Below the pieces are notes generated by a model. That model had not been told where the DNA came from and made no database searches. It was given only the letters and a program-made list of their open reading frames with translations. Both the position numbers and the translations under genes were made by a program. Positions 30,493 through 50,125 of a stretch of 64,000 bases of DNA are shown here, piece by piece. Numbering within the stretch: the stretch's first letter is position 1; every line of letters begins with the position of its first letter. Source of the DNA: Ignavibacteriales bacterium. GTDB lineage: Bacteria; Bacteroidota; Ignavibacteria; UBA10030. The stretch lies in assembly GCA_026390595.1 (NCBI GenBank), contig JAPLFQ010000003.1:1-64000 (forward strand), read 5' to 3'.

Positions 30493-33270
30493 TCATTTCA
30501 TCAAGAGCACTTTGATTGTACCGGCAAACGTCCCTGCTTTCAATTGACATACATAGACACCACTCGGCATCGCGCTGGCATTCCATCGAACCTGGTGAAT
30601 TCCCTGTCGCATCTGCTGATCGACCAATGTTGCAACTTCCCTTCCCAGGCTGTCGTACACCTTCAACGATATCCATCCTTCTTTTGGCAGGTCGAATCCA
30701 ATTGATGTTTCGGGATTGAAGGGATTGGGATAATTTTGATGCAGTGCGTACCGTGTAGGCACGATTTCTTCTTTCTCTATCCCCACCGGCGTATTCGTCA
30801 GGATCAACAGCACCGGTCCCTTTCCATCTTCCCGTCTCTCAAAATCGATCCGCTTATCCATGGCCGCGTAGTCCTTCAGCATCAAACTCACCTTTTTGTC
30901 CCCAGCGACTTCGCGAGCGACGTAGGTTCCAACATCCCAGGAATATTCCATCCCCACCGAACCCACCGTTGCTGAATCAATCAATGTCCCCGCCGACGGT
31001 GCTCCGTTCCAATTCAACGCTGTTTCCGTCCAAGTGTCTGAGCTTACAGCATACACTCCAGCCTTGATCCCCTTGCCATCCGGAAGTCCGACAGGCCGCA
31101 CGCGCATCTTCAAGACAGCACCGAGAACATTTCCCGTCACACCGCTTACATCAAACTGCACATACGCCCGATACCGGTTGAGGTCCGAGGTTCCTTCCCG
31201 CACACGCAAGAGACTGTCTGCATTAAAGTTCCTCGAGGCGCTGAAAGCCCCCTGCACGTAACTGTCGTGTATTGCGCCGGAGGATCGTACACCCCCTCCG
31301 ATCTTCCGAAAGACTGCCTTTACTTCCTTGTTCTCATTCAGGGTAACATTCTGTGGATTTGTCGTGCCGTTTACATCTCCCGTCCATTCATGGAACTCCC
31401 ACCCCGTTTCGGCTTGAGCACGCAGCTGCACTCGCGACCCTTCCGCGTACGATCCTCCCGACGGCTCCAGCCCAACGCTCCCGTGCAGAGCGGGGCGAAC
31501 AATAAGTCCGCATGTCTTCAGACGCCTGAACGTCGCCGTCACACTCTTGTGACCGTTCATCGTTATGGTCACAACGGTGTCTGTTCCGCTCGCATCTCCG
31601 CTCCATCCGTCAAGCATGCTGTCCCATGCCGGCCGCGCACGCAGTGTTACAATGGTGCCGCTGCTATAATACGGCCCTGATGGTTCTGCCACCACAACAC
31701 CAGAGCCCACGGTGCTTCTCCTGATCTCAAACTGCCCTGCCGGAATCTGACTGAATGTTGCCGTAATAGCTTTGTTTGCATCCATCAACACTGAATCAGG
31801 ATTCGATGTCCCCGTCAGGTCGCCGCTCCATCCATCAAACTTCCAGCCTAGCGCGGGCTGGGCCGTGAAGACAACCCGCGTGCCGACGAAGTACGATGTG
31901 TCCGAAGGAGATATGAGAACTGTTTCAGAACCGGCAGTTTGGACTTGGCCTTCACCCACTATGTATGTTTGGAGTCTGTATCTTGTTCCCCCTTGAATCG
32001 GTGGTGGAACGAGCGGCATTGTCTTTGAGAGTGGGATCTGTCGGTTCAGCATCTTCTTCGCCAAACCGGAGAGTCGAAGATACCAATCGCTCGGCAGGTC
32101 ATAACCGTCGGCATCTAATGTCAGCCAGTATGGATCGACTGGTGCCATAGATCTCTTCGGGCAAGCTTTGTATATGGCGGTGCCTTCATCGACTTCATCA
32201 AACATAGCCCCGTACAGCATGTTCGCTCCCGCTTCTATGGCATTGTATGCCTGTCTCCAGAGAAATTTTCCACCCCTTCGAGGTATCTGATTTTGGGGAC
32301 CAGCTTTCATGTTATACCAGGAGAAGCCTGGCCAAATTACTGGCAAGTAATCTTTCCCAGCAGCAGCCGCTATAGCGATATCGGGTATCATCGTGTTCTC
32401 TTTCCAACTATCTGCTGAGGTTGTGTCCGAATAGCGGCCAACTGTCCATGGGCTGATAACGTCCATTGACCGAAAAACCGATGCCCATGGTTCTGGCTGC
32501 AAACTCCAGTGACTTGAGCCGGTACTGCCATTGACACCGCCCATGAATGTCGCCTGGTATTTAGCAGGCGCGTCTTTCTGGAACCAATTGATCAACGCAG
32601 CAGCCTGTTCTGCAGTACCTGGCCTGCCGTCACAACCAAACCCCCAGATGGAAACAAGCGGTTTTCCTTTATGCCGCAGATAGCGAGGACTTTCGGTGAT
32701 CTTAATTACATCAACTAAATGCATCCAATCATTTTTGATATCCTCAACGAGTGTAGGCTCTTTATTGCTGGAGATGTCGTACATAACAACAAACACACGT
32801 CCGTAGGTCTCTGCGCCCTTGCGGCAATTCATCAGAACACGGTTAAATGGATCGTTCAATCCAATATGAGGTGCGCTAAAGCGTTGGAACCAAACGCCGT
32901 CTATGTCATTTTCCTTCATCCACTTGAAATGACGCACCACAGTCTTCTCGATGTGCGGTGAATAAAGCTTCACCGTACTCCCTTCGCTGTAACGCAGGTT
33001 GGTGCTAAACAACTCGTCGGCGTCCAATTCCCTTAGATCAGGAAATAGTTCGACACGCACTTTGGAGGCAGAAGGATCGGTGGTACTTGAAAACCAATGA
33101 ACCCACCCCTTGTTGGCACCGTCTCCGTTTGCGCGAAACCAGCCTTGGTAACCACACATATACTTGCCATACAGTGTTGTAGCATCAACGGAATCCTGAG
33201 CATTCAACCGGCTGGTCATGATCCAAAGCAAGAGGCATAAGAGTGATCTGGATAATACGCTGAAATTCAT
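30493..33270 (-). CDS. T9SS-secreted multidomain GH99/GH71-like enzyme
   Basis: A 925-aa exported protein from ATG 33270 (AAGGG about 10 nt upstream; signal peptide SLLCLLLWIMTSRLNA). Residues about 30-430 form a GH71/GH99-like barrel with MCGYQGWF, HFKWMKENDIDGVWFQRF and MFDEVDEGTAIY. The two Glu there (about 359 and 362) are spaced like the catalytic pair of GH99 endo-alpha-mannosidases. Three InlB/Listeria-type repeats follow (about 435-670, each ending in the W-x-GD / TATF pattern). A DNRLRE/CBM96-like domain comes next (about 680-820, WTETALNWNGAPSAG). Last is a T9SS sorting domain (QNYPNPFNPETS). It is probably the surface endo-enzyme of the locus, with the single-domain paralogue at 10585-11853 as a periplasmic counterpart. 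Confidence 0.82.
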   Translation of the reverse strand: MNFSVLSRSLLCLLLWIMTSRLNAQDSVDATTLYGKYMCGYQGWFRANGDGANKGWVHWFSSTTDPSASKVRVELFPDLRELDADELFSTNLRYSEGSTVKLYSPHIEKTVVRHFKWMKENDIDGVWFQRFSAPHIGLNDPFNRVLMNCRKGAETYGRVFVVMYDISSNKEPTLVEDIKNDWMHLVDVIKITESPRYLRHKGKPLVSIWGFGCDGRPGTAEQAAALINWFQKDAPAKYQATFMGGVNGSTGSSHWSLQPEPWASVFRSMDVISPWTVGRYSDTTSADSWKENTMIPDIAIAAAAGKDYLPVIWPGFSWYNMKAGPQNQIPRRGGKFLWRQAYNAIEAGANMLYGAMFDEVDEGTAIYKACPKRSMAPVDPYWLTLDADGYDLPSDWYLRLSGLAKKMLNRQIPLSKTMPLVPPPIQGGTRYRLQTYIVGEGQVQTAGSETVLISPSDTSYFVGTRVVFTAQPALGWKFDGWSGDLTGTSNPDSVLMDANKAITATFSQIPAGQFEIRRSTVGSGVVVAEPSGPYYSSGTIVTLRARPAWDSMLDGWSGDASGTDTVVTITMNGHKSVTATFRRLKTCGLIVRPALHGSVGLEPSGGSYAEGSRVQLRAQAETGWEFHEWTGDVNGTTNPQNVTLNENKEVKAVFRKIGGGVRSSGAIHDSYVQGAFSASRNFNADSLLRVREGTSDLNRYRAYVQFDVSGVTGNVLGAVLKMRVRPVGLPDGKGIKAGVYAVSSDTWTETALNWNGAPSAGTLIDSATVGSVGMEYSWDVGTYVAREVAGDKKVSLMLKDYAAMDKRIDFERREDGKGPVLLILTNTPVGIEKEEIVPTRYALHQNYPNPFNPETSIGFDLPKEGWISLKVYDSLGREVATLVDQQMRQGIHQVRWNASAMPSGVYVCQLKAGTFAGTIKVLLMK

Positions 33271-33456
33271 ACGTCTTTTTCCCTTTGGTAAATCACCATG
33301 CAAAGGCATGGTCCTTTGTCAGATGCGATCAATCCATATTGAGCCAGACCAGGCAATACCAGTCCCACATTGATGGGCGCCGCACCCAGCGCATGGCAAG
33401 AATCACTCATCGTGCACGTCCCGGCGAACTGTGAGAATCTGTCGGAACCGGATGAC

Positions 33457-36885: not shown

Positions 36886-39135
36886 CTATTTGTACTCTAC
36901 GGGGACTGCATTTTTGCCCCACTCTTTATCTGGTTTTTCAGCCAGAACCAGTTCGAGTTTTCCTCCGGAAATGATTTGCTGATGCGTGATAAACGGGGAG
37001 TCAATCTCCTTATCGTTCAAAAATACCTTGTGAATGTATTTCTTCCGTTTACTTGCTCCCTTCGCGACAATTTCGAACTTCTTTCCTGTTGCCAGGTTGA
37101 TGGTGATCTTTTCAAAAACAGGACTGGTTATTGCATATACTGGCAATCCTGGTGTAACAGGATACAACCCCATCGAAGAGAACACCACAAATGCACACAT
37201 TCCCCCGCCATCTTCATCACCAGGGATTCCAAAAATGTTATCTTTGAACCATACATCAAGCAGGAACCTCGTCAACTTTTGGGTTTTCCAAGGGGCGCCA
37301 AAATAATTGTACAAGTATGGGATATGGAATGAAGGCTCATTGCCCATGGAAAACTGTCCAACCATACCTGTCGAATTTGACCCGTTCACATAGAACTGGT
37401 TCTTTCGCATTCCCAATGGTTCTCTAAAAAATTGGTCGAGACGCTCTTCCGCAGCTTTTTTATCACCCAATAGTTCCACCAAACCATCAATATCATGTGG
37501 AACATCCCATGCATACGTCCATCCATTGTTCTCATCGTAATAGTCGCGGTAACCGGGTCCTCCATCAGATTTTGGATTAATCAGAATCCAGTTCCCGTCT
37601 TCATCTTTGGGCATGAAGAGCTGCAATTCCGGATACCACAAATTTCTGTAATTCTTCGACTTTCCGAAAAACAAGTTGTAATCATCCTCTTTGCCTAGTT
37701 CTTTTGCAAGTTGGGATAGCGCCCAGGAATCGTAACTCATCCCAAGTGTGACTGCCACAGCTTGACGTTTTTCAAAGCTATCGACCAGAGATTCCGTCTC
37801 TTTTTCTCCCGGGCGGAGGGCGGGATAAAATCCGTGTGTTTGATAGAAGTCGTCAATGCGGCATTTTGCAATTCCCTGTCTCCATGGAATTCCAGTTGCC
37901 ATCGTTAAATTCTTTCTGATGCCTTCATACGCTTTTTCTGCGTCAAAGCCCACAATGCCTTTGCGATACGCATCTATAAAAATCGCTGCCGAGTGGTAGC
38001 TGTTCATACACATGTGGTTTCCATGTACCTGGGGAAACGTCGGCATCCAACCGCTTTGCTCATACATAGGTGTATATGAGTTGAGCATATCGCTTTCTCT
38101 TCCAGGATCAAGGATGGTTCGTAACGGATGATGCGCGCGATATGAATCCCAGATCCAATCATCTACATAAAAAGAACGGTCGCTCTTGTGAACCTTCCCA
38201 TCGTACCCGCTATAGTATTGCCCATATTCATTGATGTCTATCATTCTCTCATAGGTTTTGTACAATGACGTGTAAAACGTTCTCTTTTGCGCATCTGTGC
38301 CCCCTTCAACCTCAATCTGGTTGATCACTTGTTTCCATTCAGTTTTTCCCCTGGCAACAAAATCTTCAAAGCTCTGTTTATCGGCTTCTTTCAAGAAGTT
38401 TTCTTTGGCCTGTTCAAAGCTTATGTATGAAATCCCGTACTTGATGAACATTGTCGAACGAGCATCTTCGGGGAAGCTCACTGAAAATTTGCCATTACCT
38501 GCATTTATACTTGTTCCGGCTATCGGTGTATCGTCAGTCCCGATGATTTCACCATAGCAATACGCTTTCATCCTGCGTGTCACTGGGACTATGTCTTTGG
38601 TTTTATACTCAATCGTTTCTTCGATTGTAAATGAAGAAGGGCCAACTGCCACGGATTGCATGGCTTCTGTTCCAGTTATCAGAATATTCTTTTTGACACC
38701 CGAAGGAAATTGGATCTTGTACACGGCGCATTTCTTACCCGGAGTAAAACTTATTGTTATGTCATCATCGATAAGGTAGGTAGAATACAACCATGGATGC
38801 ATCTCTTCAAGGTCATGATCTATGCTCATTCTTTTCTTCCACGCCACAGGAGTAATTTCTCCGACGGATACTTTCATCTGTAAAATACCGGGAGACCGGT
38901 GAGTAACAACCTGTAAAGGAAATCCGCTCACTTGATCGTCGATATAATCACTCTTCACAGGAAACATTCTCAGCATCTGATTGGGCAAACTAAATGTAGG
39001 ATATGTCGGAACAAGCAATTGTGAAACATTTCCAATTCTTGGGTCAATGTACTTAGTACCATCATCCTGCGTCCACAGGCTGGACGAGAGCAATCCGAAA
39101 AGAGCGGCAACTATGAGTGTCCGTTTCAAATACAT
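36886..39135 (-). CDS. GH92 alpha-mannosidase, GNV-LLxPT subgroup
   Basis: A 749-aa exported GH92 enzyme (ATG 39135 with GAGG 6 nt upstream; signal peptide TLIVAALFGLLSSSLW). It shows LPNQMLRMFPVK near residue 60, DSYRAHHPLRTI, the general-acid Glu in ENNGWTYAW around residue 535, MGNEP, and the intact G-D-E-D-G-GGM motif. The His-Glu pair linked to alpha-1,2 specificity is absent. It is the closest relative in the window of the enzyme at 5725-7926, but by eye its DNA is clearly more A/T-rich. It probably arrived separately and is not a local duplicate. It is the first intact gene after the 39194-39678 scar. Confidence 0.9.
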   Translation of the reverse strand: MYLKRTLIVAALFGLLSSSLWTQDDGTKYIDPRIGNVSQLLVPTYPTFSLPNQMLRMFPVKSDYIDDQVSGFPLQVVTHRSPGILQMKVSVGEITPVAWKKRMSIDHDLEEMHPWLYSTYLIDDDITISFTPGKKCAVYKIQFPSGVKKNILITGTEAMQSVAVGPSSFTIEETIEYKTKDIVPVTRRMKAYCYGEIIGTDDTPIAGTSINAGNGKFSVSFPEDARSTMFIKYGISYISFEQAKENFLKEADKQSFEDFVARGKTEWKQVINQIEVEGGTDAQKRTFYTSLYKTYERMIDINEYGQYYSGYDGKVHKSDRSFYVDDWIWDSYRAHHPLRTILDPGRESDMLNSYTPMYEQSGWMPTFPQVHGNHMCMNSYHSAAIFIDAYRKGIVGFDAEKAYEGIRKNLTMATGIPWRQGIAKCRIDDFYQTHGFYPALRPGEKETESLVDSFEKRQAVAVTLGMSYDSWALSQLAKELGKEDDYNLFFGKSKNYRNLWYPELQLFMPKDEDGNWILINPKSDGGPGYRDYYDENNGWTYAWDVPHDIDGLVELLGDKKAAEERLDQFFREPLGMRKNQFYVNGSNSTGMVGQFSMGNEPSFHIPYLYNYFGAPWKTQKLTRFLLDVWFKDNIFGIPGDEDGGGMCAFVVFSSMGLYPVTPGLPVYAITSPVFEKITINLATGKKFEIVAKGASKRKKYIHKVFLNDKEIDSPFITHQQIISGGKLELVLAEKPDKEWGKNAVPVEYK

Positions 39136-39193
39136 TCTAACCTCGAAAATCGTCACAGAACAAATGTACCAAAGACGACATGCCTGGCATTTC

Positions 39194-39678: not shown

Positions 39679-42600
39679 TTACTTCATCAACATGAGTTTC
39701 TGGACCTTCATGTTGTCATCCTGCGTAAGGCGGCAGAAATACACGCCTGATGACATTTGAGATGCATTCCACCGTACACTATGAACGCCTGCTCTTTGTA
39801 CCGTGTTGACGAGCGTGGCGACTTCCTGACCGAGAACATTGAACACTTTCAATGTCGCCGGGCCCTCTTTTGGCAAAGAGTACCTGATCGTGGTAGCCGG
39901 ATTGAAGGGATTCGGATAGTTCTGCTGCAGAGTGAACACATACGGCAGCGAGGACTCGCTCTCGACTGCGGTAAGCGTTTTCAGCAGTGCATCGACAGAT
40001 CCAATCATAACGCGTCGGATAAACACTGCCTGACCGCCCTGCCTATTGACGCGGAAATCAGAGCTGCCGTTTCCGGCGCCATTCATCTTTGCATCCGGAA
40101 GATAGAACGATTGCAGTTTCCACTGATTTGTTCCCGCGATGAAAGCGCTGGCACTTGGATCGGCATAGCTTTCTGCAAAGCTGACGTACTGCAGACCGAT
40201 CGATGTCGAGGCAGTTGTGTCATAGTATTCCAACGTGACGAGCAATTCTGAGTGGTTTCCATTGTAGATAACAGTGTCAGCCACATTGAAATACATGTAA
40301 CCCATTGTTCCACTTATCTTCTGACATTTATACCCGCCGACAAAAGCAGAATCGCGAAGGCCATCGGCCGGATATACACTGACGATGTTGTAATTTGACT
40401 GATCGCCAAGGTCTATCCAAATATCCATAATTGCCACGCGCACCTGATTAAGAATCAGATTGTTTTGTTCGCTGTGAATTCTGAAGTCGGCGCTGCCATT
40501 TTGCTTGCCGGCGAACGCGGCGTCGTTGATCTTAACGATCGCCGTTTTCCACGTCTTCGTGTTCCCGATGGTTATCCACGGCGTGTCTTTGTAATCCCTG
40601 GCCACTCCGGCAAGGGAAGCGTCTGATGAATTGTATTGTATTCTGAATCGACTGCCGGCAGTTGCGGCAGAGTCGAAATACTCTACCGAAACAAGAAGAC
40701 GGCTATGAGGCTTGGCGGCCGACAGAACGGCATCGTTCACGTTGAAGTAGGCATATCCCTTGTCCACTTGAACGCACTTCACCCCCTGAACATCTAGCTG
40801 TTTTACCGAGCCGTCAGCGGCTGTTTTTTCGACCTGACTCATGAAGCTCTCATAGTTGGTAGGGCCAAGATCTACCATTACACCTTTGTCAGTGAGAGGA
40901 ATAGGCACAAACCCCAATTGGCCCCAGAACTCATCGTCGTCGTTGTGGCCACCATACATGAGCCGCCCGCTGGATGGCCCAACGTTGTCAGCATCATTCA
41001 GGACATAGGCAAACAGAGGACTGAAGTTGTCCGGATGATTGACACTATCTGGCTTCCAGGGAATTCCTTCGGTCAGGAGTGAAAGCGGAATTGACGCTTC
41101 CAGAATGTACCCGTCCGATGTGGCTACCACTGATTTCTTGACGGTCGTCGGCAAAGCTTCACCCGTTTGACTTGTGCTATGCTTCCAGAGACCAAGGTCA
41201 GAATTTGAAGCCGGCAAGAAGATGAAATGCTCACCTTTCTGGAAGGTATTATCATCCCGTATCGCCGCCGGCTTGTTGTTCACAACCGTGTGCGAGACAT
41301 CGAAGTAGAAACCAAAGCCGTCCTTTTGATCCCAGCTTGACCCCGTGACATCCAGAACGTTGTCTTTTACTTCTACTGCGAAATACAGATTATTATCATC
41401 CCAACCGATTCTCACCATGCCGGTCAGGTCTTTGGGATCCCACGCTTCAGGAACACCCGGATTGACCACACCGCCTGCCTCTCCCGGCTCGACCACAGGC
41501 ACGTTGCTGTTATTCAGAATCCAGGTGCGATAGAACTCATCAGTTCTGAAGTTGTTTGCATCATACCTCATCTGCATTGTGTCGCGACGCGACAACAGCC
41601 AATTCCAGTCGGACACATTTCCGTCGATCGCTGGACTGTCCAGGAATTTGTACGCGCTCTGGTTTGGTACTCTTACCGTACTGGGCAAAGGCCTCTTTGG
41701 AATCTTTGTAATCGTAAGCCTATTGATATAGAGCCCCTGCGCAGAAAAATGAACGCGCATGTCGCCGCTAGCAGCTCCCAGATTATTGAAAAATGCGTCG
41801 TTTATTTCAAACGTATAGGTGCGCAAGCATCCCCAGTTCTTTTGGAAAACACTCTCAGTACTCTTGTTCGCGCCCGCCGTCCCGGCATCATACTGCACGC
41901 GCACATACTTGCTTGGATCCGGGCCATCGAGGTACTCGATAGTTATGAACACGTTGCTCCACGGAGCAGAGGAGCCGTTGAGATACGCGTTGTCCAAGTC
42001 CAGATAGGCATACCCTGAGCCTCCAGAAGCTCTGTTGGACGTCATGAGCTTCATTCCCAGCGTGTCGACATAGCGCATCAGACCATCGGTGCCGGCCAAA
42101 TTGATACGCTTAATGCCATCTGCGTCGTCTGTTCTTACACCTGCGGCGTCGGTGATTTTTCCAAAGTCTATGTACTTTTCAAAGGGTATGACTTTGACTG
42201 CGTTGATGATCATGGTGCCGGCGCAGGTCAGTTTGATATCTGCTGAATTCGCCAGGTTGTTGCCAAAATAGGCGTCATTGACAAAGAAGCTGAATGCCAG
42301 CCACTTTCGTGTCCCTGCGGTCGTGATCACATCCGGATGCGTCACCGGTCCGGCCTGCCCGCTATATTGAAGTCCGATTGTGACTGCGAGCGTATCGTAG
42401 TATTCGACATTGATCAAAGAGTACGAACCAGCTTTAAGATTCTTGAAAAAATCATCTGCGACATCGAAATACATCGCGTTGCCAGGTGCAGCATTCTTTG
42501 CGCAATACTCCCCAGCAACCTTGATGTTATCTTGTATAAGACCAGCGCCACTGTTGCCGACGAGTTTCATGTAGCGGCCCTGTGTCGTCTTTCCAAGGTC

Positions 42601-42687
42601 GATCGAGACTCCCTGGGCCATGAGCACGGTGCTCATCAGCATCAACAGCAATGCGAGGGAGCAAATGAGTTTGAAAAGTGTTTTCAT
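39679..42687 (-). CDS. T9SS-secreted repeat protein with CBM9-like domain, candidate surface glycan-binding protein
   Basis: A 1002-aa exported protein (signal peptide LICSLALLLMLMSTVLMAQ; strong AAGGAG 7 nt before the ATG). It contains four copies of a roughly 140-residue module starting near residues 28, 172, 603 and 755. Each opens with (I/V)D-(L/F)-G, has a Y-x-(Y/D)-(F/L)-(D/N)-V-x-D segment, then a (V/I)EY-x-D strand. Between copies 2 and 3 lies a CBM9/DOMON-like domain (about 350-595, SPAIDGNVSDW ... DNNLYFAVEVKDN). The C-terminus is a typical sorting domain (QNYPNPFNPATTIRY). No catalytic motif is visible. Its position in the TonB-receptor unit suggests capture of polysaccharide at the cell surface. 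The repeat is not one I can name. Confidence 0.75.
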   Translation of the reverse strand: MKTLFKLICSLALLLMLMSTVLMAQGVSIDLGKTTQGRYMKLVGNSGAGLIQDNIKVAGEYCAKNAAPGNAMYFDVADDFFKNLKAGSYSLINVEYYDTLAVTIGLQYSGQAGPVTHPDVITTAGTRKWLAFSFFVNDAYFGNNLANSADIKLTCAGTMIINAVKVIPFEKYIDFGKITDAAGVRTDDADGIKRINLAGTDGLMRYVDTLGMKLMTSNRASGGSGYAYLDLDNAYLNGSSAPWSNVFITIEYLDGPDPSKYVRVQYDAGTAGANKSTESVFQKNWGCLRTYTFEINDAFFNNLGAASGDMRVHFSAQGLYINRLTITKIPKRPLPSTVRVPNQSAYKFLDSPAIDGNVSDWNWLLSRRDTMQMRYDANNFRTDEFYRTWILNNSNVPVVEPGEAGGVVNPGVPEAWDPKDLTGMVRIGWDDNNLYFAVEVKDNVLDVTGSSWDQKDGFGFYFDVSHTVVNNKPAAIRDDNTFQKGEHFIFLPASNSDLGLWKHSTSQTGEALPTTVKKSVVATSDGYILEASIPLSLLTEGIPWKPDSVNHPDNFSPLFAYVLNDADNVGPSSGRLMYGGHNDDDEFWGQLGFVPIPLTDKGVMVDLGPTNYESFMSQVEKTAADGSVKQLDVQGVKCVQVDKGYAYFNVNDAVLSAAKPHSRLLVSVEYFDSAATAGSRFRIQYNSSDASLAGVARDYKDTPWITIGNTKTWKTAIVKINDAAFAGKQNGSADFRIHSEQNNLILNQVRVAIMDIWIDLGDQSNYNIVSVYPADGLRDSAFVGGYKCQKISGTMGYMYFNVADTVIYNGNHSELLVTLEYYDTTASTSIGLQYVSFAESYADPSASAFIAGTNQWKLQSFYLPDAKMNGAGNGSSDFRVNRQGGQAVFIRRVMIGSVDALLKTLTAVESESSLPYVFTLQQNYPNPFNPATTIRYSLPKEGPATLKVFNVLGQEVATLVNTVQRAGVHSVRWNASQMSSGVYFCRLTQDDNMKVQKLMLMK

Positions 42688-42822: not shown

Positions 42823-43830
42823 TTAGAAGACGATACTGACGGAGAATTGATGTACATTCCCGAGGTGGACAAGTGCGCTATAGGCGTAGTCGAAGCTCAT
42901 TCCGCTCTGCTTCAGGCCTACACCCATCGACAGACCTTCTTCGCTGTCTTGCATAAAAAGCGACTGATAGCCGCCCCGCAGCGTGAGCGTCTGACGAAAT
43001 TCATACTCCATACCCACATTGACACTCTCTTCATTATTGTTGGGATGAAGGTAGTCGGTTGCGACCGTGACTTTGTGATCCGGCGATGAGATGGCCTCAT
43101 ACCCCATGCCAAACCGGAACGTGAGCGGCAATGCCCATTCCTTCGTGCGGAGCTGGGCAAGGACGGTCCCGTTGTTGCCGGCCATCGTCGGGTCGATATC
43201 GGTCGGAACAACCGCGTCAACTCCCTGCATCTGAAGTTTGGAACCGAAATTCGTAATCGACATGCCTATCTTCGCCCCCCTCCACGGGAGCGAATAGAGA
43301 ATTCCGAAGTCCGCCGCGATGGCGTTTGCCTCCATATGCCATATGCGCCGTTGGATGTATTTGAATGATCCACCGAATGTAAACCGGTCCGTCAGGTTCT
43401 TGGCGTAACTGAGCCCGATCGCAATATCGGCGGCGTCAAATCTCCAGCCGAGTCCTTCCGGCTGATCGACGGTTCGCACGAGCATTTCCGGAGTGGAAAG
43501 CGAGGTCACCGACACACCGAACGATCCGACGCTCCCCGCCTTGATCACCAGGCCCGCATAGATGAAATCCATGTCGGCGATCCAATTCATGTAACTGAAG
43601 GAGACTTCGTTCGAAGGGAGTTGTTCCAACCCTGCCACGTTCCAGTACATGGCCGTGGCATCATTGGCGATCGCCGTATAGGCTTTGCCCATCCCGACTG
43701 CGCGCGAACCGACGCCGAACTCCAAAAATGGAGCGGCAGTCGTTCCACGCTTTGAGACAGGCTCTTGACTCGATGCTCTTCCAGCGGAGATAAGGATGAG
43801 CATGAGCGAGGCATACACAATTCGTTTCAT
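42823..43830 (-). CDS. PorV/PorQ-family outer-membrane beta-barrel protein
   Basis: A 335-aa protein with a signal peptide (LMLILISAGRASS). The family block FLEFGVGSRAVGMGKAYTA and NDATAMYWNVAGLEQL appear near the N-terminus. Alternating beta-strands run to a C-terminal aromatic residue (FSVSIVF). PorV and relatives are outer-membrane barrels associated with the type IX secretion system that hand cargo to the attachment machinery. Here the gene lies 35 bp after the 1078-aa protein gene, inside a TonB-receptor unit. A dedicated partner for the locus cargo or an uptake component is therefore possible. It is unlikely to be the housekeeping PorV, given the setting. Confidence 0.8.
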   Translation of the reverse strand: MKRIVYASLMLILISAGRASSQEPVSKRGTTAAPFLEFGVGSRAVGMGKAYTAIANDATAMYWNVAGLEQLPSNEVSFSYMNWIADMDFIYAGLVIKAGSVGSFGVSVTSLSTPEMLVRTVDQPEGLGWRFDAADIAIGLSYAKNLTDRFTFGGSFKYIQRRIWHMEANAIAADFGILYSLPWRGAKIGMSITNFGSKLQMQGVDAVVPTDIDPTMAGNNGTVLAQLRTKEWALPLTFRFGMGYEAISSPDHKVTVATDYLHPNNNEESVNVGMEYEFRQTLTLRGGYQSLFMQDSEEGLSMGVGLKQSGMSFDYAYSALVHLGNVHQFSVSIVF

Positions 43831-43864: not shown

Positions 43865-46800
43865 TCAGTTTATGATTGCGAACGTGCCGATTTTGTGACC
43901 AATATCTTTTGCTTCGATATAGTAGACGTAGACACCGAATGCTACTTCTAATCCTTCACTCGTTGTCAGGTCCCACGTTGCAGCTCCGTCGGCCATCCTG
44001 CCGAGGTGGTCGATCGTCTTTATGAGAACGCCGTTCTGGGTGTAAATCCTTATTGTGCATTCCGACGGAAGGTGAATAAACGAAATCTTCCGTTCTCCTC
44101 GTCCCGGCATCGATGAGCCGCGTTCCCATGAAGCTGTAAGAAGATATGGATTGGGAACCACTGCGACCTTGTCCAACTGAAAGGGTGGGGAATTGCGTAC
44201 GGTTTTGCTAGCCGTGGTTCGGAAATAGTACTTGTCACTCGTGCTAAACGGAATTGGCGAGACGAAATTGTACACGTCTCCTCCGCTAGGCAGGATGGTC
44301 TCAGGATAGACAACCTGATTTAACCTCCATGCCCATCGATACGTGCCATCACTTTTGCGCACGCCTATATAAAGAGGATCGTTCTTGTCCCAAAAACCTT
44401 TTCTGGATACCAGCGATTGGTAAAGATAAAACGGCACCATTTCCCCTGTAGCTACATCGATGACCCGAAAGCGAGTGTTGACGGTCGCACTGGTCGCGCT
44501 CATCGAGGCAAAACCTTTTCCGGAAATCGTGTCGGTGATTTCGATCCGGAACGATATTGGATAGGTGTAGGCAGAGGTATCGGTGTACGACACATCGACG
44601 AAAGCATTGGTCTTGGAGCTGGGCCCCCAACCAGATCGTTGCAGGATTGCCAGCAACGATGGCGTCGGATTTGTGAAGTTCAGCGCGATGCCTGCGAACA
44701 CCGTGCTCGTCCATGCAGTGTCGTACCGCTGCCACTGATACGTAGCCATCTTGCTGAGCGAATCGATGACCAGCCGTTTGAGCGGAATCGCGATGTCCTG
44801 CATGCCGGGAATCAGGGTTTTGGTTGTTGTATCCCTGAGAGAAAAGCTCGTGGCATACGGAATGCCGATCCCGGCCTCAACGCCGGGAGTCGTTCCGAAG
44901 GTGAGCTCATAGACATGGTTGTCGGGGAGCTGGTCCGGATCGACCACAGTTGCGCCAATCGTCCCCGTCGCTCCTCCGACCGGATGGGAGAAACTTGCCT
45001 TGTCGATCTTTCCCGCGACGTAGTCCGTTGCGGGCGCATTCGGCGTGACAACGACTGCATTTTGTGACAACCCCACCAACTCACCATACTCAACCGTGAT
45101 ATTGTAGGGGCTTTCATAGGGAGTCATCGGTATCAGGTTCCGGTCGTCCATCCCCTCATAATAGCCCTTGTCATAGGAGGTGATAACATAGTAGTAGGTA
45201 ACACCGTTGACCACATTGTTGTCTTCGAAGTAGTGGCGCAACCCGGTGTCCTCTCCCATGTTGAAATGAATGCCGGTGCTGTACTGATCGCCGAGCTCCG
45301 CGCCGAGAGCAATGGGATGGACCCCTTTGATCCCATCGTTCAGGTCGAACTGAGCTATTGGCTGCTTGTAGGTAATGCTTCCATACGCGTCCGTGATTTT
45401 TTCAGCTTCGGTCAACTGGGGATTCGTGCCCCGATAGATCCGATAACCTTCAAAGTCCTTGCCGTAGAGCGGATCGCGCGATCGTTCCGCAATGTCATCC
45501 CAGTAGAGAGTCACTTTCCTGTCCCCGGCGACGGCTTTCACGGTGGGAGGAATAGGTGGGCTGGCAAAGCGGTAATCATTGTCATAGATCCGTTGTGAAG
45601 TTTGGGCATTGCGCAGAATCTCGACAGGATCATTTCCGAAGAGCCAGCACACCGAGAACCGCTCAGTCTGCTTTTTTTTCAGATCGAATGGTCCCGAAGC
45701 AAATAGCCAGACGTTGTTTTCGTTTTGAGCCGGTGTCTGGAATTGACGCGAGGTGATATAATTCCAGACCGCCTCATCATTCGAAATCTGCAGTGTTCCG
45801 TAGACAGGAGCAATAAAGGATGTCAATCCGATTTGATCGGATTCGTCGTTGTCAGTCTTCCCGAAATTCGGCTCACCCTGGTCAGGCTTCCCGTTCGACT
45901 CGGTTCCATCTGCGTCGGGCGCAGAGTAGTAGGGATCGAGCGGTCCAATTCCATCGGACCCGACGTCATCGATTTCCTTTTGCCAGTCACCATCTTCGTC
46001 GCCGCTCCAGTGCCATTTGGGCTTATCATATTTACCCACTGGTCCAAAAATCCAGGTCCCTGCGTCGTTATCCCGGCTTTCATCAGTCAAGCCGTCGTTA
46101 TCATTGTCGATGCCATCTGCATTGATGCCCGGACTCTCGAGGTACTTCCAGCCAATGTAGCCCGGCAGTATGTTCCTGTACGAACTAAATTGTGATTCCC
46201 TGCCGTTATCATAATCCCAGGCAAAAACCATGTTCTCCTCTCTGTTGAATCCCGACATGTCGTCATGATCGCCCTCCCCTCCCGGATGAGTGTCTGCGAA
46301 CGCCCCAAAATAGATGGGCGTAGAGGTCCGGCGGTAATCATTGTCGGAAGCATTCGACACCTGGAAGTGTATGAAGATCTGGTCTTCAGCCAGCGGGTGC
46401 GCCCATTGGAAGAGGCGTGCCTCTACCTGAAGTCCCAGGCCCCGGCGGGTGCTATCGTTGGCGAACGGATAGTATGGGAATTCGGCATTGTAGGAATCGT
46501 CCATCACGTACACTGCCTCCTGATCTGCGGTGAATTGATCCTTGCCGAAGTATCCGTTCCATCGATTGTTCCAAGTAGCATCTTTTCCGGGCCATGTGGG
46601 CGGCCAAGTCGTCCGATCCGTGCTCGTCGCTATCAATGAAGTGGTATCCGTGCGTAATGTTTGTGGATTGACGTACCGTCGGCGCGGGTTGAAATATCCT
46701 GGTAGCGGATTCCACCAGTACTCTGTCCTTTGATCGGGGGAGATGTCCTTGTTGTTTCCGTACGATTCGCTGATGATGTGCAGGATATCCCCTTTCGCGC

Positions 46801-47089
46801 TCGTCACTTCAGCTCCGACCAGAATACTCATTTCGGAGACGTGGCCATGTCCCGAACCAATGGGCCATGCTCCCGACAAAGTGGGGTTTTGCGGCTCCCC
46901 GAATGTCCCCTTGTTGAAAACGATCGATTCCACTTTGTTGCGGTTCATGATGAGCGACCTTCGGTACAATTTGTTCCCCACATTCGGGTCGATGTACACG
47001 GCTTGGCTGTTCTGGGCCGCCGCAAGGTCTCCAAACAGCAGAGTCAGGGCCATCTGGAAGGCAAGAAACAACTGTCGATTTCGTTTCAT
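43865..47089 (-). CDS. Large exported protein of a TonB-receptor unit, function unknown
   Basis: A 1074-aa exported protein (ATG 47089; signal peptide LFLAFQMALTLLFGDLAAAQ). The N-terminal half is W/Y/N/D-rich with several acidic, calcium-loop-like stretches (DGIDNDNDGLTDESRDND near 325; DADGTESNGKPDQGEPNFG near 395). A fibronectin-III-like domain follows (about 530-640, KAVAGDRKVTLYWDD ... YRIYRG). The C-terminus (about 985-1074, VVPNPYLLTASWE ... GVYVYYIEA) has the fold pattern of a FlgD/T9SS C-terminal domain without the PNPFNP motif. It sits 57 bp after the TonB receptor gene, exactly where SusD would be in a Sus-type locus, but has no TPR or SusD features. I cannot name its family. Confidence 0.7.
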   Translation of the reverse strand: MKRNRQLFLAFQMALTLLFGDLAAAQNSQAVYIDPNVGNKLYRRSLIMNRNKVESIVFNKGTFGEPQNPTLSGAWPIGSGHGHVSEMSILVGAEVTSAKGDILHIISESYGNNKDISPDQRTEYWWNPLPGYFNPRRRYVNPQTLRTDTTSLIATSTDRTTWPPTWPGKDATWNNRWNGYFGKDQFTADQEAVYVMDDSYNAEFPYYPFANDSTRRGLGLQVEARLFQWAHPLAEDQIFIHFQVSNASDNDYRRTSTPIYFGAFADTHPGGEGDHDDMSGFNREENMVFAWDYDNGRESQFSSYRNILPGYIGWKYLESPGINADGIDNDNDGLTDESRDNDAGTWIFGPVGKYDKPKWHWSGDEDGDWQKEIDDVGSDGIGPLDPYYSAPDADGTESNGKPDQGEPNFGKTDNDESDQIGLTSFIAPVYGTLQISNDEAVWNYITSRQFQTPAQNENNVWLFASGPFDLKKKQTERFSVCWLFGNDPVEILRNAQTSQRIYDNDYRFASPPIPPTVKAVAGDRKVTLYWDDIAERSRDPLYGKDFEGYRIYRGTNPQLTEAEKITDAYGSITYKQPIAQFDLNDGIKGVHPIALGAELGDQYSTGIHFNMGEDTGLRHYFEDNNVVNGVTYYYVITSYDKGYYEGMDDRNLIPMTPYESPYNITVEYGELVGLSQNAVVVTPNAPATDYVAGKIDKASFSHPVGGATGTIGATVVDPDQLPDNHVYELTFGTTPGVEAGIGIPYATSFSLRDTTTKTLIPGMQDIAIPLKRLVIDSLSKMATYQWQRYDTAWTSTVFAGIALNFTNPTPSLLAILQRSGWGPSSKTNAFVDVSYTDTSAYTYPISFRIEITDTISGKGFASMSATSATVNTRFRVIDVATGEMVPFYLYQSLVSRKGFWDKNDPLYIGVRKSDGTYRWAWRLNQVVYPETILPSGGDVYNFVSPIPFSTSDKYYFRTTASKTVRNSPPFQLDKVAVVPNPYLLTASWERGSSMPGRGERKISFIHLPSECTIRIYTQNGVLIKTIDHLGRMADGAATWDLTTSEGLEVAFGVYVYYIEAKDIGHKIGTFAIIN

Positions 47090-47145
47090 ACACTTGTCCA
47101 ATACTATGGGTGAGACATAGTCATTCGTTCATTCTCTGGCCTGCT

Positions 47146-49806
47146 CTACAGGCCGATTTCGATTCCGACCCTGATGAGACGCGGTCGCGGTTGACTGGCC
47201 GGATTGAAGCGATATTCATAGAGCGAATTAAGAACTGCGCGCGTTTCGTGCGACGCCAGATCCACTGATGAAAGTTCAGGTCTTGAGTCAATACGCTGCG
47301 CATCGAACACATTATACACCGATACAAACAATGTCGGCCTGAAGCCGAACAGCGAGAAACGCTGGTAGAAGTTGAGGTCCGTATTGAACTCCCCGCGACG
47401 ACGTCCCTGGCGCATCAGCTGAATATTAGGTTGCTGGTCGAACGTGGTCGTCGGATTATACGGCGTGCCGGTCGCGTAGTGGCTTATGGATTTGACCCCC
47501 CATGTTTCACCCTCGACTGAGAGTACCGCATTCAGCACATTTCGCTGATCCCAATCGAGAGGAACCAGGGATTTCGTGGATTCATCCCTGTTCTGTGCGT
47601 CCAGAAATGCCTGCCGCGGATCAGATCCGTTTCCTTCGGCAACCTGATACGTGTAATCGACATTGGCACTGAACATTCCTGTTTTCAGAATGTCGAGCGC
47701 GAGCGTGATCCCCCATGCATTCCCGTAGTCCCGGTTCGAGTATTGCCCGTACTGGTCAAGGTCGAATGTCTGAAACAGCGACGAACCTGCCAGGTTGCGT
47801 ATGTCTTTGTAGAAGCACGTTGCGTCCAGCACCAGGTTCTCTGCAATGCGTTGCTGCAATCCGATTTCGTACGTTACTGTCCGCTGAGCATCGAGATCCG
47901 CATTGCCGATGAACGACTGAAACCGGCCATTGACCTCGAACTCCGGATTTTCGTAGAGACGCTGGTATTCAGGCATCTGGAAGAAATGACCGTACGAGGC
48001 ATGAATACTCCCGTTGTCGGAAATAGGAAATGCGAGTCCCAGCCTGGGACTTACCTGCATCTTCGCCGTTGCGTTTCTGTAGGCCTGGTCTTCGGTATAC
48101 TTGGCGTGGCTGAGCGTGTCGTCGTTATGCGGGTCAATCATCGACACCGGGACTTTGCTGCTGGCGTCGAAATAGTCGAACCGAATGCCGGCGTTCACAA
48201 TCAGATCCGAAATCTCGATCTTGTCCTGAATGTACGCTGCGCCCTCGATCGGCTTCTTGTGATAGTAGTTGTGCGTCGAAGAACTTATGTCCGGTATCGT
48301 GAGCTGCCATTTCGATTGCTCGTTCTTTACAACCGAGAACGATTCTTCCTTGATGTCGAGCAACCGGTATTCTGCTCCAGCCTTGATCATGTTGTACTGA
48401 TTGAGCTGGCTCGTAATCTCGTATTTGATCGCAGTCGTGGAGCTCTTGCGATCCAGGAACCGCGGATCAACGCCGCCGACGACGAAGACGTCCTGCAGTG
48501 AGGACTGTGCCAGCGGATGAATCCCCGCATCATAGATCGGATCGAACGGATTGTCGCTTGCGTGTTCCTCGCGGCTGTACGTTTCGTACGAGATTTTGAG
48601 TTCGTGGAATGTCGAAGCATTGAGCGTATGAGTCAGTACCGCCAGATGGTTGAGACTCAAGGAGTAGAGATTTCTCATGTAGTCGGGGGTGTACTTGTAC
48701 GCGTGAGAGTAGCTCTTGTTCTGCGATCGGTCGACGATCAGGCTGTAGGTTGCATTGAGGTTGGTCATCGGACGGTACGAGATCTTCGCCATCCCCGAAA
48801 CCGCCTCGAACGGGTTCATGGGAACATCGGAACTGTCGCCTGAGTGCTGCACGATCCAGTTGGGAGCATGGTTGAAATTGGCCGTGTCCGACGGGATATA
48901 AATCCGGCGGCCGAAAAGCCAATTTTCATCTTTCCTAAAGCGTGCAGAAACACGATAGCTGATCTTCTCACCGAGAAGAGAGACCGGACCGCTGAGCGCT
49001 GCTTCCACATATTTCTGATTGAAGGGATTGACCTTGGTGAGATGAGGGAACACCTCCGTCCTTGAGGTGACAAAGCCGGCGCTGCTGGCGGTGAGAGAGA
49101 CATCCGTCTTGTCGCCCCCATCCTTCGTTACGATATTGATAATTCCAGAGAGAGCACGCCCGTACTCCGCATTGAATGTTCCGCTGATAACCTGCAACTC
49201 CTGGATGTTGGAGTTCTGGATGTTGCTGAAAGCATTAGCGCCATTGAAGGGATTCGAGACCGGCATGCCGTCAACGTAGTACTGTACTTCAGACTCGCGA
49301 CCACCGCGCATGTGGATATTCCCCGACGCATCGGTTGTGACACCTGCCTGCAGCTCCAGAATATCACCGACCGTTTGCACCGGAAGGTTGGCGATGTCGC
49401 TTTCCGCGATGTTCTCGACGGTGGAGGTCAGGTCGCGGATGATGGCCGGTCGTTGCGCGATCACCTCAACGGTCTCGAGATTCACTGTGGCCGGAGTCAG
49501 CGCAAGATCGATCGTGGTCGTTCTGTCCACGTTCACGATCACCTGTTTCTTGACGACCGTCTGAAAACCGATGCAGGAGATCCGGAGGTCGTATCTCCCC
49601 GGGGGAACATTCAAGACAGAGTAATGGCCCGTCTCGTCCGATGAGGCGCCGAGAGTCGTATTGAGAATCATGACGTTGGCCCCAATGATTGGCTCCTTGG
49701 TGACAGCATCCGTGAGTGTGCCGGCGATTTTTCCTTTTGTGTCTGCGAGTGTCCACGCGGGCATTGTCGTCAGCAACAAGACAACGAGAGAGAGTTTCAC
49801 CTTCAT
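47146..49806 (-). CDS. TonB-dependent outer-membrane receptor (first gene of uptake unit)
   Basis: An 886-aa receptor from ATG 49806 (GAGG 9 nt upstream). The frame continues to 49935, but the signal peptide (LSLVVLLLTTMPAWTLA) starts here. Domains are a carboxypeptidase-regulatory-like fold (about 24-105, GKIAGTLTDAVTKEPIIGANV) and a plug (about 110-240). The plug has VEVIAQRP, MRGGRESEVQYYVDGMPVSN and NIQELQVISGTFNAEYGRALSGIINIV across its length. The rest forms a 22-strand-type barrel. It would import oligosaccharides using TonB energy. It leads a unit with the 1078-aa protein, PorV-like barrel and repeat protein. No SusD gene is adjacent. A predicted promoter and operator lie about 320 bp upstream. 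Confidence 0.9.
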   Translation of the reverse strand: MKVKLSLVVLLLTTMPAWTLADTKGKIAGTLTDAVTKEPIIGANVMILNTTLGASSDETGHYSVLNVPPGRYDLRISCIGFQTVVKKQVIVNVDRTTTIDLALTPATVNLETVEVIAQRPAIIRDLTSTVENIAESDIANLPVQTVGDILELQAGVTTDASGNIHMRGGRESEVQYYVDGMPVSNPFNGANAFSNIQNSNIQELQVISGTFNAEYGRALSGIINIVTKDGGDKTDVSLTASSAGFVTSRTEVFPHLTKVNPFNQKYVEAALSGPVSLLGEKISYRVSARFRKDENWLFGRRIYIPSDTANFNHAPNWIVQHSGDSSDVPMNPFEAVSGMAKISYRPMTNLNATYSLIVDRSQNKSYSHAYKYTPDYMRNLYSLSLNHLAVLTHTLNASTFHELKISYETYSREEHASDNPFDPIYDAGIHPLAQSSLQDVFVVGGVDPRFLDRKSSTTAIKYEITSQLNQYNMIKAGAEYRLLDIKEESFSVVKNEQSKWQLTIPDISSSTHNYYHKKPIEGAAYIQDKIEISDLIVNAGIRFDYFDASSKVPVSMIDPHNDDTLSHAKYTEDQAYRNATAKMQVSPRLGLAFPISDNGSIHASYGHFFQMPEYQRLYENPEFEVNGRFQSFIGNADLDAQRTVTYEIGLQQRIAENLVLDATCFYKDIRNLAGSSLFQTFDLDQYGQYSNRDYGNAWGITLALDILKTGMFSANVDYTYQVAEGNGSDPRQAFLDAQNRDESTKSLVPLDWDQRNVLNAVLSVEGETWGVKSISHYATGTPYNPTTTFDQQPNIQLMRQGRRRGEFNTDLNFYQRFSLFGFRPTLFVSVYNVFDAQRIDSRPELSSVDLASHETRAVLNSLYEYRFNPASQPRPRLIRVGIEIGL

Positions 49807-50125
49807 TGCGATATACCTCGAAGAGTGGATTGTGAGCGCTTTCCCTGGACCACGTTGCGGCTCCGGGCAAGCAGGACGGACAGGGGGGGCCGTCAAGGAC
49901 GTAATGCTCCCTCTCTCAAGATTATGGCTGTCCATCAGATGCGCTTGGTCAATGAGGCTGAAGAAAGTATCGAAATGTCAGCAGCCCGGTGCGAAGAGGG
50001 TGCGAGGATCGTCTCGCCTTAGCGTAATCAGGTTGTCAGAGCAGGACTAAACTGAATATATTCTAATGCGTATATCCTGGATTTCTTGCCAAGTGAATAG
50101 AATATCTTGTGCTCTGACCACGAAG

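What the first reader, a model, noticed from the sequence alone, without database searches (positions are those of the whole stretch)
39679..42687. Four-copy beta-sandwich repeat that I cannot assign to a family
The 1002-aa protein contains four modules of about 140 residues (near 28, 172, 603 and 755). Each begins with an I/V-D-L/F-G motif, has an aromatic segment ending in V-x-D and then an E-Y-x-D strand, arranged two on each side of a CBM9-like domain. The symmetrical layout and lack of a catalytic motif suggest a carbohydrate-binding module used in tandem.
Basis: partly seen in the sequence, partly recalled or inferred. Interest (0 to 1): 0.6.

Follow-up and report, generated by a model that had tools for sequence, protein, structure and literature searches.

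The report
Four-copy CBM-like surface glycan-binding protein
A secreted bacterial protein carries four copies of an unnamed sugar-binding-type domain around a known sugar-binding-like domain, beside a transporter and mannose-removing enzymes, so it is probably a cell-surface catcher for a mannose-rich polysaccharide, although binding has not been tested.

Summary
The 1002-aa protein has four homologous modules (residues 27-170, 171-338, 602-752, 753-898), two on each side of a CBM9_1 domain, and a T9SS sorting tail. No Pfam or NCBIfam family covers the module. It does have relatives: profile searches found it behind GH42-like barrels in Bacteroidota, Verrucomicrobiota-type and Sumerlaeota records, and behind two GH99 domains in a genome of the same class. 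An AlphaFold2 model of module 1 (pLDDT 85.5) is a beta-sandwich like CBM22/CBM35/CBM6 (Z 11-12, about 10% identity), but toxin, Cry and meprin domains score nearly as high. Profile comparison did not place it in CBM_4_9 or CBM_35. A full-length ortholog (44%) in another family keeps the 2+CBM9+2 layout, the gene order TonB receptor - X - PorV-like - module protein, and a GH99 gene next door; the copies pair by position in a tree. Best reading: a surface glycan-binding protein of a SusD-less uptake system for an alpha-mannose-rich, probably acidic or sulfated polysaccharide. Glycan binding, ligand and partner contacts are inferred, not shown. New sequence family in a known fold class; moderate interest.

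The parts
39679..42687 (-). 1002-aa multi-module secreted protein, the finding
   Evidence: ortholog in G027 (76% over the 675 aa before the contig end, pS 0.746, pN 0.140) and G898 (44% over residues 1-1002)
42610..42687 (-). Probable Sec signal peptide, residues 1-26 (by eye; no cysteine after the hydrophobic stretch)
   Evidence: sequence; no signal-peptide program was run
42178..42609 (-). Module R1, residues 27-170; CBM-type beta-sandwich in the AlphaFold2 model
41674..42177 (-). Module R2 with linker, residues 171-338
40885..41673 (-). Central region residues 339-601; CBM9_1 match residues 416-538 (41074-41442)
40432..40884 (-). Module R3, residues 602-752
39994..40431 (-). Module R4, residues 753-898
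39691..39918 (-). T9SS type A sorting tail, residues 924-999
   Evidence: PF18962 41.1 bits; TIGR04183 46.7 bits, cut-off 23
42823..43830 (-). PorV/PorQ-family outer-membrane protein, 135 bases upstream of the module gene; order conserved in G027 and G898
   Evidence: PorV_fam NF033709 225 bits, cut-off 90
43865..47101 (-). Protein X, 1078 aa, unassigned, FlgD-like C-terminal end; 60% (G898) and 83% (G027) identical
47146..49935 (-). TonB-dependent receptor with CarboxypepD_reg domain; below the SusC/RagA subfamily cut-off (70.3 of 368.25 bits)
36886..39156 (-). GH92 family enzyme (alpha-mannosidase family), next gene downstream
   Evidence: PF07971 498 bits; TIGR01180 627.5 bits
33457..36807 (-). 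GH38 alpha-mannosidase family enzyme
30493..33309 (-). CBM96 protein with a sub-threshold GH99 match (20.1 of 33 bits) and T9SS tail; homolog beside the ortholog in G898

Best explanation
The protein is a T9SS-secreted, non-catalytic surface glycan-binding protein. Four copies of one CBM-like beta-sandwich family plus a central CBM9-like domain give a multivalent catcher; it is probably delivered with the PorV-like protein, stays at the outer membrane near the TonB receptor and protein X, and holds an alpha-mannose-rich, probably acidic or sulfated polysaccharide while the GH99-like, GH92 and GH38 enzymes cut it for import. Shown: four homologous modules, CBM9_1 and T9SS tail, conserved layout and gene order, module homologs fused to glycosidase-type domains, predicted CBM-type fold of R1. 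Inferred: export to and retention at the surface, glycan binding, the ligand, contact with the TonB receptor, X or PorV-like protein.
For: Modules and chance control. CBM9_1 and T9SS tail over their cut-offs. R1 model pLDDT 85.5, pTM 0.83; top VIA row 2w5f_B, Xyn10B, Z 12.3, 127 aligned, 2.6 A; CBM35 rows 11.3-11.6 and CBM6 rows up to 11.4. Module homologs behind GH42-like barrels in 21 loci and behind two GH99 domains, 67 bits against 33, in G955; profile link between this protein type and the GH42-fused type 99.1%. Ortholog in G898 keeps 2+CBM9+2 and TonB receptor (51%) - X (60%) - PorV-like (60%) order with a GH99 gene over the cut-off directly downstream. Copies pair by position, local supports 0.90-0.94. 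Purifying selection: pS 0.746 (saturated), pN 0.140 over 675 codons. Precedent for a SusD-less uptake locus with a CBM-like SGBP: CHU_1279, PMC12016534 (abstract and passages).
Against: No binding data. Foldseek's first 11 rows for R1 are iota-toxin Ib chains, and iota-toxin, meprin and Cry chains reach Z 11.0-11.4, tied with the CBM rows, so the fold does not prove sugar binding. In the GH42-like relatives the module stands at a fixed place behind the barrel (residues 412-519 in 20 of 21 loci; one is cut at the locus edge), which also suits a structural domain. The window's own GH99 match is under the cut-off (20.1 of 33). Of 5 other genomes of the same genus, 0 have the protein, so it is accessory. 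The model is of R1 only; R2-R4 were not folded.
Confidence: 0.62

Rival explanations
1. Scaffold or adhesion protein: the modules are protein-protein contact domains that hold the TonB receptor, X and PorV-like proteins together or stick cells to surfaces, without specific polysaccharide binding.
For: The same fold class holds meprin, Cry and iota-toxin domains. The gene order with X and PorV-like is conserved in two further genomes, which fits an assembly role. In C. hutchinsonii the presence of CHU_1279 mattered more than its cellulose binding (passages of PMC12016534).
Against: Module homologs are fused to GH42-like and GH99 domains in other genomes, and a CBM9_1 domain lies in the middle.
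Confidence: 0.2
2. The module is a structural support domain of GH42-like barrels that was copied into this protein and keeps the chain soluble or spaced, a string of spacers around CBM9.
For: Fixed position directly behind the barrel in 20 of 21 loci, and last domain of the protein in 5 of 21.
Against: It also occurs behind GH99 domains and free of a barrel here; all four copies are retained and pair by position with those of G898, unlike interchangeable spacers.
Confidence: 0.1
3. It binds a glycan, but not the one degraded by the neighbours: for example the cell's own surface polysaccharide, as a surface-layer or anchoring protein.
For: T9SS cargo can be anchored at the cell surface (search listing abstract of PMC10202324); the protein has no catalytic match.
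Against: Position next to TonB receptor, GH92, GH38 and CBM96/GH99-like genes and next to GH99 in G898.
Confidence: 0.08

Closest known systems
[quoted passage not shown] abstract and passages seen)
   Same: Non-catalytic protein of CBM-like beta-sandwich domains in a SusD-less locus with a TonB-receptor-like barrel.
   Different: Two modules instead of four plus CBM9; cellulose instead of a probable alpha-mannan. The sequences were not compared here.
Carbohydrate-binding module families CBM22, CBM35, CBM6 (beta-sandwich fold)
   Same: Predicted fold: Z 10.7-12.3 with 115-127 residues aligned.
   Different: About 10% identity; no Pfam match of any module to CBM families; profile comparison 7.0-14.7% with CBM_4_9 and 0.1-0.2% with CBM_35 for the sets that hold this protein's modules.
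CBM9_1 (PF06452), central domain
   Same: 42.5 bits against a cut-off of 23.4; also in the G898 ortholog, 43.8 bits.
   Different: Match covers 108 of 185 profile positions (26-133); binding residues were not examined.
GH42-like barrel proteins with the same module (Limnovirga soli, Chitinophagaceae, Kiritimatiellales, Opitutaceae, Akkermansiaceae, Sumerlaeota, Flavobacteriaceae; L040-L060)
   Same: Homologous module, 99.1% profile probability.
   Different: One module behind a glycosidase-type barrel; here four modules and no barrel.
Alpha-mannan utilization loci with GH92, GH99-like enzymes and sulfatases (PMC6298971, PMC13063451; passages seen)
   Same: Similar enzyme families as in this window: GH92, a GH99-like protein, GH38, a sulfatase.
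   Different: No SusD matched in the window proteins scanned; heparinase II/III-like genes and a T9SS multi-module binding protein are present.

Membership tests
Any Pfam-A or NCBIfam family for the module | Profile match over the curated cut-off in the module region | tested here: not met
   Whole protein: only CBM9_1, Por_Secre_tail and tail-region matches. 6 and 25 module sequences against Pfam: 0 families matched by more than one member; best is GATase_5, 16.5 bits against 27.
CBM22 / CBM35 / CBM6-type beta-sandwich | Fold | tested here: met
   R1 model pLDDT 85.5; Z up to 12.3 to 2w5f_B, about 11.5 to CBM35, 11.4 to CBM6. Meprin, Cry and iota-toxin domains tie with these rows, so the fold class is met, not one family.
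CBM_4_9 (PF02018) and CBM_35 (PF16990) | Sequence-profile kinship | tested here: inconclusive
   hhalign 14.7% (all modules, E 0.0018) and 7.0% with CBM_4_9, 0.2% with CBM_35; positive control (CBM_4_9 halves) 99.4%, sorting-tail control 0.1-0.2%. CBM_4_9 against CBM_35 also gave only 0.6%, so the test does not see across CBM families. Pfam cut-offs not reached.
Carbohydrate-binding module | Measured glycan binding | not testable with these tools
   No binding assay; no coordinates of the model were available to map a site.
Carbohydrate-binding module | Attached to carbohydrate-active enzyme domains | tested here: met
   Relatives: GH99 over the cut-off in G955, two stretches; GH42 over the cut-off in 2 of 14 GH42-like proteins scanned, under it in 4, no GH42 match in 8. 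Not attached to an enzyme domain in the window protein itself.
CBM9 (central domain) | PF06452 over cut-off | tested here: met
   42.5 bits, cut-off 23.4.
T9SS type A cargo | C-terminal sorting domain over cut-off | tested here: met
   PF18962 41.1 of 27 bits; TIGR04183 46.7 of 23 bits.
SusD/SusE/SGBP-type surface lipoprotein | Lipoprotein signal (recalled as typical of the family) | tested here: not met
   By eye: the only cysteine of the first 32 residues is C9, inside the hydrophobic stretch. It may work like an SGBP but is not filed as one of these lipoproteins.
SusC/SusD uptake pair | SusC-type receptor with SusD gene beside it | tested here: not met
   TonB receptor 70.3 of 368.25 bits for SusC/RagA. 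No SusD match in the 21 window proteins scanned against Pfam. One SusD_RagB match in the whole genome, elsewhere; other SusD families were not searched.

The most novel reading that the evidence does not exclude
A lineage of Bacteroidota that has almost no SusD may use a different capture machine: a TonB receptor, protein X, a dedicated PorV-like protein and a T9SS-delivered multi-CBM protein forming one outer-membrane complex, with the four copies of a new CBM family holding different parts of one decorated alpha-mannan.
Probability: 0.25. Interest if true: 0.65.

Novelty: new member of a known kind. Interest (0 to 1): 0.42.

Why it matters
The module is a candidate new carbohydrate-binding family that occurs next to two kinds of glycosidase-type barrels and in a four-copy binder, so one binding assay could annotate proteins in several phyla. 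The gene set makes a testable case for glycan capture without SusD in a branch of Bacteroidota, in line with the SusD-less cellulose locus of Cytophaga (PMC12016534, abstract and passages).

Tried and rejected
3hnw_A matched the six-row module profile A1 at E 0.0018; with the 25-row profile A4 no chain matched at E up to 5, and the model is all-beta, so it is taken as chance. GATase_5 (E 0.0047, one member of 25) is under its cut-off and taken as chance.

A scan of genome contigs with the whole protein found no relative. A scan of viral contigs with A3 found none. Literature searches for such a module or a T9SS/TonB/CBM9 binder listed no description of this module; one search listed 0 papers. 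That is a limit of these searches, not proof that it is unpublished. CAZy/dbCAN was not available.

The first profile-profile comparison read minus-strand loci on the wrong strand and dropped 12 of 21, 6 of 11 and 4 of 9 rows; it was redone with all rows. Only one search is used.

The second structure job (L058 barrel plus module) gave pLDDT 62.0 and pTM 0.48. Its fold matches, Foldseek to GH35 chains first and VIA to GH14 beta-amylase Z 15.2 and GH35 about 12.5, show a glycosidase-type barrel but no family, and nothing on how the module packs. A rule for which aromatic residues bind could not be drawn from conservation alone: the residues shared by most copies may be core residues.

Full report
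What is there. The ORF at 39679-42687 (-) codes for 1002 residues. Four modules (residues 27-170, 171-338, 602-752, 753-898) flank a CBM9_1 domain (residues 416-538) and a T9SS sorting tail follows (residues 924-999). All 12 ordered module comparisons score above all 500 shuffles each. The weakest pair, R1-R2, is only just above (28.1 against 25.8 bits), but the profile of six modules finds all four copies strongly.

Is the module known? No Pfam or NCBIfam family matches it: whole protein, six modules and 25 module sequences (no family hit by more than one member). PDB sequence profiles gave nothing with the larger alignment.

Where else it occurs. The full protein was found in 1 of 60 relatives, G027; two further weak matches (E about 5e-4) cover 53-67 residues of the CBM9 region. 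The five other genomes of the genus had none. The module profile A1 matched 2 of 395 genomes of the phylum, the own one and G179. The wider profile A2 matched 5 of 391 genomes of the class, the own one included (G000, G027, G861, G898, G955), and 5 of 395 genomes of G179's class (four of these five were not looked at further). It is thus rare and scattered. A scan of named genome contigs with the G179-type module gave 21 loci: 17 Bacteroidota (among them Limnovirga soli, the named record of G179), one Kiritimatiellales, one Opitutaceae, one Akkermansiaceae, one Candidatus Sumerlaeota. Many are metagenome bins.

Architectures. In 20 of these 21 loci the module starts at residue 412-519 of the open frame, in one the locus is cut; in 5 of 21 the module ends the protein, in 16 it is followed by more sequence. 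In front lies a barrel: PF02449 (GH42) is over its cut-off in 2 of 14 such proteins scanned, under it in 4 and absent in 8; the profile of 11 of them matches the GH42 enzyme 5xb7 at E 1.7e-5 over about 97 positions; a low-confidence model (pLDDT 62.0) matches GH35, GH42-like and GH14 barrels. Conserved acidic residues exist, but catalysis was not tested. In Limnovirga proteins SprB, PKD_6 and, in three of the four long ones scanned, a T9SS tail follow (the fourth frame was cut). In G955 a 1649-aa protein has two GH99 stretches (67 bits, cut-off 33), each followed by a module. In G861 two barrel-plus-module genes stand beside a T9SS protein, a TonB receptor and a sulfatase.

The same protein elsewhere. 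G898, another family of the class, has a 1005-aa ortholog, 44% identical over residues 1-1002, with four modules around CBM9_1 (43.8 bits). By domain the identity is 42, 33, 46 and 46% for R1-R4 and 53% for the CBM9 region. In a tree of 24 modules R1 groups with R1, R2 with R2, R3 with R3 and R4 with R4 (local supports 0.90-0.94), so the four-copy layout is older than the split of these two families and the copies have been kept apart since. Against G027 pS is 0.746 (saturated) and pN 0.140 over 675 codons.

Neighbourhood. Upstream, in the same direction and with gaps of 135, 34 and 44 bases (coordinates), are a PorV/PorQ-family protein (225 bits, cut-off 90), protein X (1078 aa, no family over a cut-off) and a TonB receptor that is below the SusC cut-off. 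The order receptor - X - PorV-like - module protein is kept in G027 (76, 83, 77, 76%) and G898 (51, 60, 60, 44%). Downstream are GH92, GH38 and a CBM96 protein with a sub-threshold GH99 match; farther off are two heparinase II/III-like genes and a sulfatase. In G898 the gene directly downstream is GH99 over the cut-off (52.5 of 33 bits, with WbsX 60.3 of 25.1), and the homolog of the CBM96/GH99-like gene follows. One SusD_RagB match exists in the genome, elsewhere.

Fold. R1 with 25 sequences gave pLDDT 85.5 and pTM 0.83, twelve elements, nearly all strands. VIA-align lists the xylanase Xyn10B chain 2w5f_B first (Z 12.3, 127 aligned, 2.6 A, residues 37-181; that this is its CBM22 is recalled), then CBM35 and CBM6 chains (11.3-11.6), with iota-toxin Ib, meprin beta and Cry chains at 11.0-11.4. 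Rows within 1 Z are tied, so no single family is singled out. Foldseek's first rows are iota-toxin Ib chains; CBM16, CBM6 and CBM35 chains follow.

Membership. The modules of this protein type and those of the GH42-like type are one family (99.1%, E 3.8e-19; 12 against 12 modules). Against CBM_4_9 the probability is 7.0-14.7% and against CBM_35 0.1-0.2% for sets with this protein's modules. The control halves of CBM_4_9 gave 99.4%, sorting tails 0.1-0.2%; CBM_4_9 against CBM_35 gave 0.6%, so a miss does not exclude remote kinship.

How it likely works. Secretion through T9SS, retention at the surface, and multivalent capture of the polysaccharide that the GH99-like, GH92 and GH38 enzymes attack, in the manner of surface glycan-binding proteins, is the reading that fits best. 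In a diatom sulfated-mannan locus GH195 (distantly related to GH99), GH92 and two sulfatases suffice (passages of PMC13063451); GH92- and sulfatase-rich loci with a GH99 relative have been read as glucuronomannan loci (passages of PMC6298971). The window has similar enzyme families, so an alpha-mannan with acidic or sulfate groups is the leading ligand, at perhaps 45%. Cytophaga hutchinsonii gives a precedent for a SusD-less locus with a CBM-like binder (PMC12016534, abstract and passages). That paper also found that the presence of the protein mattered more than its binding, which keeps the scaffold rival alive.

Verdict. A real, conserved, unassigned CBM-like module family and a plausible binding protein: ordinary in fold and role, new in sequence and layout. 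Interest 0.42.

Noticed in passing
43865-47101 (-); L127:11203-14415; L061, L063, L064: Protein X, between TonB receptor and PorV-like gene, is the best conserved of the four genes (60% in G898) and has acidic D-x-D-x-D-G-like stretches; X homologs recur in the own genome beside TonB-receptor and PorV-like homologs (L061, L063, L064). In L062 receptor and PorV-like homologs were found without an X match.
   Followed up: partly
whole genome G000: The sorting tail of this protein matches 129 further places in its own genome, and the PorV-like protein gives 21 match rows there (some split within one frame).
   Followed up: no
30493-33309 (-): CBM96 (98.6 bits, cut-off 26), InlB-type repeats, T9SS tail and a sub-threshold GH99 match in one protein.
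   Followed up: partly
L044, L047, L049: Barrel-plus-module frames of 2366, 2459 and at least 2577 residues; the Limnovirga one (L044, seen as L025) carries many PKD_6 and SprB repeats.
   Followed up: no
L128:1-9163 (G861): Two adjacent GH42-like barrel-plus-module genes with a T9SS protein, TonB receptor and sulfatase; a second kind of uptake locus that uses the module.
   Followed up: partly
L058:4885-9852: A sugar phosphotransferase system (EIIA/HPr/enzyme I and EIIBC) next to the barrel-plus-module gene in an Opitutaceae bin.
   Followed up: no
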